Shown here: positions 25,039-26,135 of the stretch, in pieces
Numbering within the stretch: the first letter of the stretch is position 1
Layout of the letters: every line of letters starts with the position of its first letter
From: Conexibacter sp.
GTDB lineage: Bacteria; Actinomycetota; Thermoleophilia; Solirubrobacterales; Solirubrobacteraceae
Direction: 5' to 3'
DNA length: 44,533 nucleotides
Assembly: GCA_025964325.1 (NCBI GenBank)
Contig: JAOPZA010000226.1
Span: 1 to 44,533, forward strand
The notes under the pieces: generated by a model
What the model saw: only the letters and a program-made list of their open reading frames with translations
The model's database searches: none
Told to the model about the DNA's origin: nothing
Position numbers and translations under genes: made by a program

Positions 25039-25407
25039 CTAGACGGCGGAGACCGCTTCCTCGTCCGCGACGCGGAACGAGGAGCCGCAACCGCAGGCGG
25101 CGGTCACGTTGGGGTTCTCGACCTTGAAGCCGGCGCCCTGGAGGTCGTCGACGTAGTCGATCGTCGAGCCGCTGACGTAGGGAAGGCTGGGCGTGTCGAC
25201 GAGCAGGCGGATGCCCTTGTCCTCGAAGACGGCGTCGTCGTCGCGCTGCTGGTCGAAGGCGAGCGCATACTGGAAGCCAGAGCAGCCGCCGCCGCGGACG
25301 CCGACGCGCAAGCCGGCCAGATCGGCCTCGGAACCCTGGGAGGAGAGAAACTCGCGGACCTTCTCGGCGCCTCTGTCGGTGAGCGTGATCATCGGTGCGT
25401 TCTCCAT
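25039..25407 (-). CDS. erpA: HesB/IscA-family iron-sulfur carrier (ErpA-like)
   Basis: This 122-residue A-type carrier delivers Fe-S clusters to apo-proteins. The three conserved cysteines are in GGGCSGFQYALAFD and in ACGCGSSFRV near the C-terminus, the standard C-x(60-70)-C-G-C pattern. I use ATG 25407; ATG 25392 (MITLTDRGAEKVREFL) with GGAG 9 nt upstream is equally good. The gene is divergent from bolA and the CGFS glutaredoxin and shares a palindromic control region with them. All three belong to Fe-S trafficking. Confidence 0.95.
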   Translation of the reverse strand: MENAPMITLTDRGAEKVREFLSSQGSEADLAGLRVGVRGGGCSGFQYALAFDQQRDDDAVFEDKGIRLLVDTPSLPYVSGSTIDYVDDLQGAGFKVENPNVTAACGCGSSFRVADEEAVSAV

Positions 25408-25465
25408 CACGTTTGCTGGCTGCTCAGGTGGCCGGAAACCGCCGCCCACCTCCATCACTTCATTC

Positions 25466-25487
25466 AGTGTAGCGACCTCGCTACCCT
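25466..25487. promoter_or_regulatory. Bidirectional promoter with perfect palindrome between erpA and bolA
   Basis: GTAGCGACCTCGCTAC (25469-25484) has perfect 7-bp arms around CC. A minus-strand -10, TACACT (25471-25466), overlaps its left edge. A plus-strand -10, TACCCT (25482-25487), overlaps its right edge, so one bound regulator could block both promoters. TACCCT ends 8 nt before the bolA ATG (leaderless-type spacing); erpA would have a leader of about 50 nt. An Rrf2/IscR-SufR type Fe-S sensor is a natural candidate, but that is inference. Confidence 0.55.
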
Positions 25488-25495
25488 CTGAGGAG

Positions 25496-25714
25496 ATGGC
25501 AACGAACGAAGAGCTCAAGGAGCGGATCGAGGCCGGCATCCCCGGCGCCACCGCCGAGGTGAGCGGCGACGGCCACCACTTCGAGGCCGTCGTGGCCGCG
25601 ACGCAGTTCACCGGTCTGAGCCGGATCGCCCAGCATCGTCTCGTCTACGACGTGTTCGGCGACGAGCTCGGTGGCCGCATCCATGCCCTCTCCCTGCAGA
25701 CCAAGGTTCAGTGA
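25496..25714 (+). CDS. bolA: BolA family protein
   Basis: This 72-residue BolA domain has the pattern ELKERIEAGIPGATAEVSGDGHHFEAVVAATQF, then LSRIAQHRLVYDVFGDELGGRIHALSLQT. The invariant C-terminal His (RIHAL) and the GDGHHF loop provide ligands when BolA binds a [2Fe-2S] cluster with a CGFS glutaredoxin. That partner follows 10 nt downstream in the same operon. The length and the absence of extensions match BolA/IbaG proteins. ATG 25496 sits directly after GAGGAG with a -10 at 25482, so translation is probably leaderless. Confidence 0.94.
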   Translation: MATNEELKERIEAGIPGATAEVSGDGHHFEAVVAATQFTGLSRIAQHRLVYDVFGDELGGRIHALSLQTKVQ

Positions 25715-25724
25715 GGACTTCCAC

Positions 25725-26135
25725 GTGAGCGACGAGACGACGAATCCCCTCCGCGACGCGATCAGACAAGCGATCGACGAGAACGCCGTGATCCTCTTCA
25801 TGAAGGGCACACCGGAACAGCCGATGTGCGGCTTCTCCGCGCGCACCGCGGGCGCGCTGCAGACGCTCGACACGCCCTTCGCGGCGGTCGACATCCTGCC
25901 CGACCCCCGTATCCGTCAGGAGCTGTCGGCGCTGTCGAACTGGCCGACGATCCCCCAGCTGTTCGTCAACGGCGAGCTCGTCGGCGGCGCCGACATCGTC
26001 GCCGAGATGTACGAGAGCGGCGAGCTGGCGCAGCTGCTCGGCGCCGAGCAGCCGGGCGAGGCGCCGACCGAGGCGCCGGCGGCAGCGCCGCGCGAGGGCG
26101 CGCCGCTGCCGGTCGAGAACCGCCTCGGCAGCTAG
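25725..26135 (+). CDS. Monothiol CGFS glutaredoxin (Grx4-type)
   Basis: This 136-residue protein has the family hallmarks: a KGTPEQPMCGFSARTAG active site with CGFS, SNWPTIPQLFVNGELVGGADI (TVP-like cis-Pro and GG-D glutathione site), and a helix ending in QLLGA. Such proteins bind glutathione-ligated [2Fe-2S] clusters and pair with BolA. The last 30 residues are an Ala/Pro/Glu-rich tail not found in most family members. GTG 25725 has GAGG 9 nt upstream. The frame is open to 25671 but that would overlap bolA. Its stop overlaps the convergent peptidase gene by 4 bp. Confidence 0.94.
   Translation: MSDETTNPLRDAIRQAIDENAVILFMKGTPEQPMCGFSARTAGALQTLDTPFAAVDILPDPRIRQELSALSNWPTIPQLFVNGELVGGADIVAEMYESGELAQLLGAEQPGEAPTEAPAAAPREGAPLPVENRLGS

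What the first reader, a model, noticed from the sequence alone, without database searches (positions are those of the whole stretch)
25408..25495. Bidirectional Fe-S promoter with a single perfect palindrome between erpA and bolA-grx
GTAGCGACCTCGCTAC overlaps the -10 boxes on both strands. One regulator could control an A-type Fe-S carrier and a BolA/CGFS-glutaredoxin pair at the same time, making a compact Fe-S trafficking regulon of three genes. The bolA transcript would be leaderless and erpA leadered, so their translation may respond differently to stress.
Basis: partly seen in the sequence, partly recalled or inferred. Interest (0 to 1): 0.56.

Follow-up and report, generated by a model that had tools for sequence, protein, structure and literature searches.

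The report
Thiol-gene switch between erpA and bolA
The palindrome is just two back-to-back promoter boxes, but one of them carries a conserved control element that the same soil bacteria also place in front of their thioredoxin, cysteine and sulfur-transfer genes, pointing to an undescribed redox-gene control system.

Summary
The palindrome GTAGCGACCTCGCTAC (25469-25484) is real, but palindromes of its size are ordinary in this window. It occurs once in the 4.34-Mb genome and is kept in 2 of 51 relatives with divergent erpA and bolA. It is two divergent -10 boxes back to back, not an operator. The bolA box (25482-25487) makes a leaderless mRNA likely.

The erpA box belongs to a different, strongly conserved 20-bp element (25455-25474, minus strand; consensus CGCTATACTTTnTGAAGTA) that covers the -10 and the predicted start. 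In its own genome the core occurs exactly four times: before erpA, trxA, trxB and an ABC exporter. Across the order it also precedes moeZ, cysK, cysE, a redoxin and a sigma-70 gene. This is largely the SigR/SigH thiol-stress gene set, but SigH-type promoters were not found (0 of 110) and no SigH_actino sigma passed its cut-off (0 of 41 genomes). I read it as the operator of an unidentified repressor.

bolA-grx has no element of its own. Spacing between the two -10 boxes clusters near whole helical turns (strong overall, weak in strictly new cases), so the erpA-bound regulator may also act on bolA. Regulator, sign and starts are inferred.

The parts
25039..25392 (-). erpA, A-type Fe-S carrier (MITLTDRG...), start ATG at 25392
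   Evidence: PF01521; NCBIfam ErpA over cut-off; start aligned in relatives
25402..25405 (-). GGAG Shine-Dalgarno-like sequence of erpA
   Evidence: sequence; GGAG also before erpA in several same-genus relatives
25455..25474 (-). conserved control element CGCTACACTGAATGAAGTGA (candidate operator), covering erpA -10 to predicted start
   Evidence: matrix score 20.2 against a best of 3.0 in 799,240 background positions; core is one of exactly four sites in the genome
25466..25471 (-). -10 box of erpA, TACACT
   Evidence: sequence; part of the conserved element
25459..25459 (-). predicted erpA transcription start (seventh base after the -10)
   Evidence: inference from the -10 position; not mapped
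25469..25484 (.). the palindrome GTAGCGACCTCGCTAC: two divergent -10 boxes with CGC extensions, back to back
   Evidence: kept as a unit in 2 of 51 relatives
25482..25487 (+). -10 box of bolA, TACCCT, 8 nt before the ATG
   Evidence: TAnnnT at gap 5-10 in 41 of 51 and 121 of 130 relatives
25496..25714 (+). bolA, probably leaderless
   Evidence: PF01722; -10 spacing
25725..26135 (+). grx, CGFS monothiol glutaredoxin, downstream of bolA (GTG start)
   Evidence: PF00462; NCBIfam Grx4 over cut-off

Best explanation
The palindrome is the chance-compact form of two back-to-back extended -10 boxes. The working part is a 20-bp element on the erpA side (CGCTAYACTnnnTGAAGY, dyad core near TACTTnnnnAAGTA) that contains the erpA -10 box and reaches the predicted start. 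An unidentified DNA-binding protein probably binds it and represses erpA by blocking RNA polymerase, together with trxA, trxB and an ABC exporter in this genome and with moeZ, cysK, cysE and redoxins in relatives; a thiol, sulfur or Fe-S signal would lift it. bolA-grx is transcribed the other way from a leaderless -10-only promoter. Because that promoter tends to sit near whole helical turns from the element, the bound protein may also touch polymerase on the bolA side. Shown: element, its genes, leaderless geometry, spacing pattern. Inferred: the protein, repression, the signal, and any effect on bolA.
For: Core CTAYACTNNNTGAAGY: exactly 4 sites in the 4.34-Mb genome, 32 sites in 8 of 11 genomes, reversed control 0; all 32 precede erpA, trxA, trxB, cysK, moeZ, a redoxin or the ABC exporter. 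Strict motif: 93 of 151 genomes of the order, reversed control 0. Downstream genes of 115 distinct sites: moeZ 37, trxA 33, redoxin 13, cysK 12, ABC 5, trxB 4, erpA 3, sigma-70 2, cysE 1, one unrelated, four without a readable gene. A matrix from 114 such sites scores the erpA strand above every background position in 34 of 36 and 117 of 130 family loci. CGC and the A after the motif are conserved outside the searched letters. bolA -10: 121 of 130; TAnnnT is the general leaderless signal of the genus. -10 to -10 spacing: 35 merged events under 60 bp, z 12.9 at 10.5 bp, with flat controls.
Against: No regulator was found: no motif lies near Rrf2 or suf genes (42 loci), a NarL-type regulator beside moeZ does not follow the motif across genomes, and Rrf2 numbers do not either. 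13 of 130 family loci lack a convincing element, and it is missing from most of two sister families (2 of 10 and 0 of 5 have it). The dyad is imperfect; this species' own site is degenerate in the half nearer the -10. Spacing was noticed post hoc: strictly new events alone give p 0.20 (Rayleigh) or 0.056 (same phase), and no phasing is seen beyond 60 bp; 15-bp spacing in 8 loci and 4-5-bp in 5 are off phase.
Confidence: 0.7

Rival explanations
1. One reading: the palindrome itself is the operator of one regulator that controls erpA and bolA-grx together.
For: It lies exactly between and on both -10 boxes; the nearest relative keeps the arms with a changed centre.
Against: Kept in 2 of 51 relatives; once in the genome; the two halves drift apart from 2 to 127 bp; chance-level abundance.
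Confidence: 0.06
2. The element is not an operator but a promoter read by a dedicated sigma factor, so erpA, trxA, trxB and the rest form a sigma regulon.
For: The element contains its own -10 and its position relative to the start is fixed; a sigma-70 gene carries it in two loci.
Against: No conserved -35 region; conservation runs past the predicted start; near-palindromic core; SigH-type promoters absent in 110 of 110 regions.
Confidence: 0.17
3. The regulator acts on erpA only; the spacing pattern with bolA is a post hoc coincidence or a bias in how DNA is inserted and lost.
For: Strictly new events are weak (p 0.056 for the same phase, 12 events); no phasing beyond 60 bp; bolA has no element of its own.
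Against: Whole set: z 12.9 for 35 events under 60 bp, 0 of 2000 scrambled sets as high; distances to the erpA start and intergenic lengths show no phasing.
Confidence: 0.45
4. The bound regulator represses both erpA and bolA, by covering erpA's start and the upstream half of the bolA promoter.
For: In the window the element is centred 33.5 bp before the bolA start, inside a polymerase footprint (geometry).
Against: At 40-63 bp upstream simple blocking of bolA is unlikely, yet spacing there still falls at 41-43, 52-54 and 62-65, which looks more like activation.
Confidence: 0.2

Closest known systems
SigR (Streptomyces) / SigH (Mycobacterium) thiol-stress regulon
   Same: Much the same genes: thioredoxin system, mec-cysO-cysM and moeZ are direct SigH targets in PMC4803200 (passages read; its table also lists Rv2204c, which I recall to be an A-type carrier).
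   Different: SigH uses GGAAYR-N17-GTT: 0 of 110 element promoters have it and 0 of 41 relatives have a SigH_actino sigma over the cut-off. Here one element overlaps a housekeeping-type -10.
Bidirectional promoters of the Grainger group (PMC12825309, passages read)
   Same: Divergent genes with linked function, symmetric -10 sequences, polymerases that probably cannot both bind.
   Different: There the -10 is shared and starts are mostly 10, 18 or 23 bp apart; here the -10 boxes are separate (10 bp apart) and the predicted starts are 37 bp apart, and in relatives much further.
Leaderless actinobacterial promoters with TANNNT (PMC3160421, passages read)
   Same: TAnnnT 6-10 nt before the start codon and no -35, as measured here in the genus.
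   Different: bolA adds a frequent CGC before the box.
Rrf2-type Fe-S and cysteine regulators (IscR, SufR, CymR; from memory)
   Same: They control Fe-S, cysteine and sulfur genes and bind imperfect palindromes over promoters.
   Different: No element in front of the Rrf2 or suf genes tested; Rrf2 numbers do not track the element.

Membership tests
SigR/SigH regulon | promoters GGAAYR-N17-GTT | tested here: not met
   0 of 110 element promoters, none in the erpA-bolA region
SigR/SigH regulon | a SigH_actino-type sigma factor in the genome | tested here: not met
   0 of 41 genomes over the TIGR02947 cut-off, best 87.1 against 251.55 bits; one of 14 control genomes passes
SigR/SigH regulon | target set with thioredoxin system, moeZ and cysteine synthesis | tested here: met
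   gene tally against passages of PMC4803200
Bidirectional promoter | shared -10 element, starts about 10-23 bp apart | tested here: not met
   -10 boxes 10 bp apart, predicted starts 37 bp apart; starts not mapped
Bidirectional promoter | mutual exclusion of polymerases | not testable with these tools
   overlapping footprints predicted only
Leaderless gene (bolA) | -10 box 6-10 nt before the start codon | tested here: met
   121 of 130 loci at gap 5-10; 3.1 of 51 expected
Leaderless gene (bolA) | mapped 5' end at the start codon | not testable with these tools
   no transcript data
Rrf2-regulated operator | site at the Rrf2 gene or suf operon | tested here: not met
   no match in 42 Rrf2 and suf loci; operator forms far from the motif could be missed
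Rrf2-regulated operator | regulator present where the motif is and absent elsewhere | tested here: inconclusive
   2-5 Rrf2 genes in all 30 genomes, motif-bearing or not
ErpA | NCBIfam ErpA cut-off | tested here: met
   118.6 against 117 bits

The most novel reading that the evidence does not exclude
One thiol- or Fe-S-sensing regulator uses a single operator with two faces: bound, it blocks erpA (with trxA, trxB, cysK and moeZ) and at the same time helps polymerase onto the leaderless bolA-grx promoter, whose distance is held near whole helical turns. In Solirubrobacterales this system has replaced the SigR/SigH sigma factor as controller of the thiol-stress gene set.
Probability: 0.3. Interest if true: 0.78.

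Novelty: new variant of a known kind. Interest (0 to 1): 0.58.

Why it matters
It would show that a whole thiol-stress gene set can be kept while its controller is swapped, from an ECF sigma factor to what looks like an operator-binding protein, in an order of soil actinobacteria whose redox regulation I did not find described. It also gives a small, testable regulon with only four sites in this genome, and a natural series of spacings for testing promoter coupling between an Fe-S carrier gene and its glutaredoxin-BolA partners. GrxD feeding clusters to ErpA in E. coli (PMC11327457, abstract) makes joint control of these genes sensible.

Tried and rejected
Palindrome as operator: rejected. Palindrome plus suf/Rrf2 genes: no element near 42 Rrf2 and suf loci. 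NarL-type response regulator beside moeZ as the binding protein: it is missing at E<=1e-55 in the own genome and other motif-bearing genomes and present in motif-free G037 and G038 (only the 20 best candidates per genome are scored there, so misses are possible). Rrf2 subfamily by presence and absence: no contrast. My type-by-type sorting of Rrf2 genes misread minus-strand loci and was not used. The symmetric pattern TACTTNNNNAAGTA alone is not above its reversed control, so symmetry by itself is not the signal; the asymmetric core with the -10 is. Leaderless erpA with an N-terminal extension: the frame is open here but shifted in the nearest relative (sequences), so the SD-led start is preferred.

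Spacing test: seen post hoc on 20 loci, then tested on 130. Two of 132 stretches were dropped because erpA was not in them; 109 of 130 had both an element above background and a bolA -10 and enter the spacing counts. With all spacings the best period is 11.5, with those under 60 bp 10.5-11. Only-new events: p 0.20 and 0.056. Matrix scores are partly circular for the letters of the strict pattern; from the strict letters themselves I judged that none of the divergent family erpA sites was in the training set, without a separate call for it.

Full report
What was claimed. A perfect palindrome between erpA and bolA-grx was said to overlap both -10 boxes and to serve one regulator of three Fe-S genes.

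Check. The palindrome is at 25469-25484. Its arms overlap the -10 boxes TACACT (25471-25466, minus) and TACCCT (25482-25487, plus). Sixty-two repeats of this size class lie in the window and 59-68 in shuffles; 8 of 300 shuffled intergenic regions have one. The pattern GTAGCGNNNNCGCTAC occurs once in 4,336,881 bases. Genes are as named.

Conservation. Of 61 genomes 60 have the BolA protein. In 51 of these 60, erpA lies divergently and next to it; the other nine belong to one sister family with another order of genes, two of them without erpA in the stretch fetched. Only 2 of the 51 keep the 16-mer; the half boxes TAGCG and CGCTA, found together in 20 of 51, lie 2 to 127 bp apart. So the palindrome is not the conserved unit. 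The -10 boxes are: TAnnnT stands 5-10 nt before the bolA start in 41 of 51, with 3.1 expected. In 400 kb of a same-genus complete genome TAnnnT piles up 6-10 nt before ATG-started frames while the reversed control is flat, and no -35 signal is seen; this is the leaderless signal described for actinobacteria (PMC3160421, passages).

A different element. Reading the 51 regions, the erpA side shows CGCTAYACT followed by TnnTGAAG in most of the family. A pattern for it, CTTYNNNAAGTRTAGC, had 53 listed sites in 37 genomes against 5 for the reversed control. Most sites were not at erpA but before thioredoxin, thioredoxin reductase, cysteine synthase, serine acetyltransferase, a glutaredoxin-like protein, a MoeZ-type rhodanese/adenylyltransferase and a sigma-70 gene. 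The stricter CTAYACTTTNTGAAGT has sites in 93 of 151 genomes of the order and none for the reversed control; an 18-letter form gives 65 stretches in 84,980 species, nearly all labelled Solirubrobacterales, Thermoleophilia or actinobacteria without a finer name. The 115 distinct sites examined fall before moeZ 37, trxA 33, redoxin 13, cysK 12, ABC exporter 5, trxB 4, erpA 3, sigma-70 2, cysE 1, one unrelated frame in a record labelled Maribacter, and four without a readable gene. Family names of representatives; the exporter passes no cut-off among the 25 families shown there.

In this genome the core CTAYACTNNNTGAAGY has exactly four sites: erpA (window 25457-25472), trxA, trxB and the exporter. 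Across 11 genomes there are 32 sites in eight, none in three, and none in the reversed control; all 32 are before genes of this set. A 20-column matrix from 114 sites gives the window site 20.2 where the best of 799,240 background positions reaches 3.0. In the family 34 of 36 loci beat the background, and 117 of 130 in the enlarged set of 132 genomes; in two sister families 2 of 10 and 0 of 5. Good hits on the bolA strand are the same site read backwards.

How it probably works. The element runs from before the -10 to past the predicted start, so a protein there would block polymerase. Conservation outside the searched letters (CGC before, A after) and a near-dyad core fit a dimeric protein; some erpA sites swap the inner pair in step (for example ACTTTGGAAAGT and ACTTCGGGAAGT, sequences). 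I therefore infer a repressor. Its gene was not found: neither Rrf2 nor a NarL-type neighbour fits.

Relation to known regulons. SigH of M. tuberculosis directly controls thioredoxin reductase genes, mec-cysO-cysM and moeZ through GGAAYR-N17-GTT (PMC4803200, passages); SigR plays this part in Streptomyces (PMC4921905, passages). Here 0 of 110 element promoters carry that signal and 0 of 41 genomes have a SigH_actino sigma over the cut-off. The gene set looks kept and the control exchanged; this is a comparison of gene lists, not a demonstrated replacement. In some genomes moeZ, a ThiS/CysO-like gene, a JAB/Mec-like gene and cysK lie together, near suf genes and a cysteine-bearing Rrf2 gene (names by resemblance).

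Does it reach bolA? In 109 of 130 loci both boxes can be placed. Their spacing piles up at 8-10, 18-21, 29-31 and 38-43 bp. Merging near-equal spacings within each of 23 genera leaves 45 events; the 35 under 60 bp give z 12.9 (p 2.5e-6) at 10.5 bp, 0 of 2000 phase-scrambled sets reach the observed value, and intergenic length or distance to the erpA start show nothing (z 0.76, 1.19). The element's centre then lies about 32, 42, 53 and 63 bp before the bolA start, positions at which activators often sit (from memory). Against it: I noticed the pattern before testing it; the 12 strictly new events under 60 bp give p 0.20, or 0.056 for the same phase, while all 20 new-locus events give 0.0025; 15-bp spacing in eight loci and 4-5-bp in five do not fit, and nothing is seen beyond 60 bp. 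I rate coupling as possible, not shown.

Verdict. Observation real but ordinary; interpretation wrong about the palindrome, right about the leaderless bolA, and perhaps right in spirit that one regulator touches both promoters. The finding worth keeping is the element and its gene set.

Noticed in passing
L020, L024, L027, L032, L037 (erpA-bolA regions, sister family f4): All five carry another conserved sequence at erpA, GACTrCrGTCCATTTTA (by eye), with a palindromic GACTrCrGTC next to a TAAAAT box, as if erpA control had been exchanged again.
   Followed up: no
L234, L240, L260, L264, L271 and, in part, L203, L242, L265: A histidine kinase/NarL-type regulator pair and a cysteine-bearing Rrf2 gene lie near moeZ with the element and suf genes in several genomes of the order.
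   Followed up: partly
L192, L198, L285 (family f3): In these loci of the sister family in which erpA is not beside bolA, erpA still has the element; the frame begins 7 nt after the -10, that is, inside the element.
   Followed up: no
L085, L202, L238: A sigma-70 family gene carries the element, so the system may feed into a further sigma factor.
   Followed up: no
G000:C9:19016-19031 (L276, L299, L334) and relatives: An MsbA-like ABC exporter of unknown substrate carries the element in all seven genomes of the genus searched, with its start codon next to it; a thiol or redox substrate would be a guess.
   Followed up: partly
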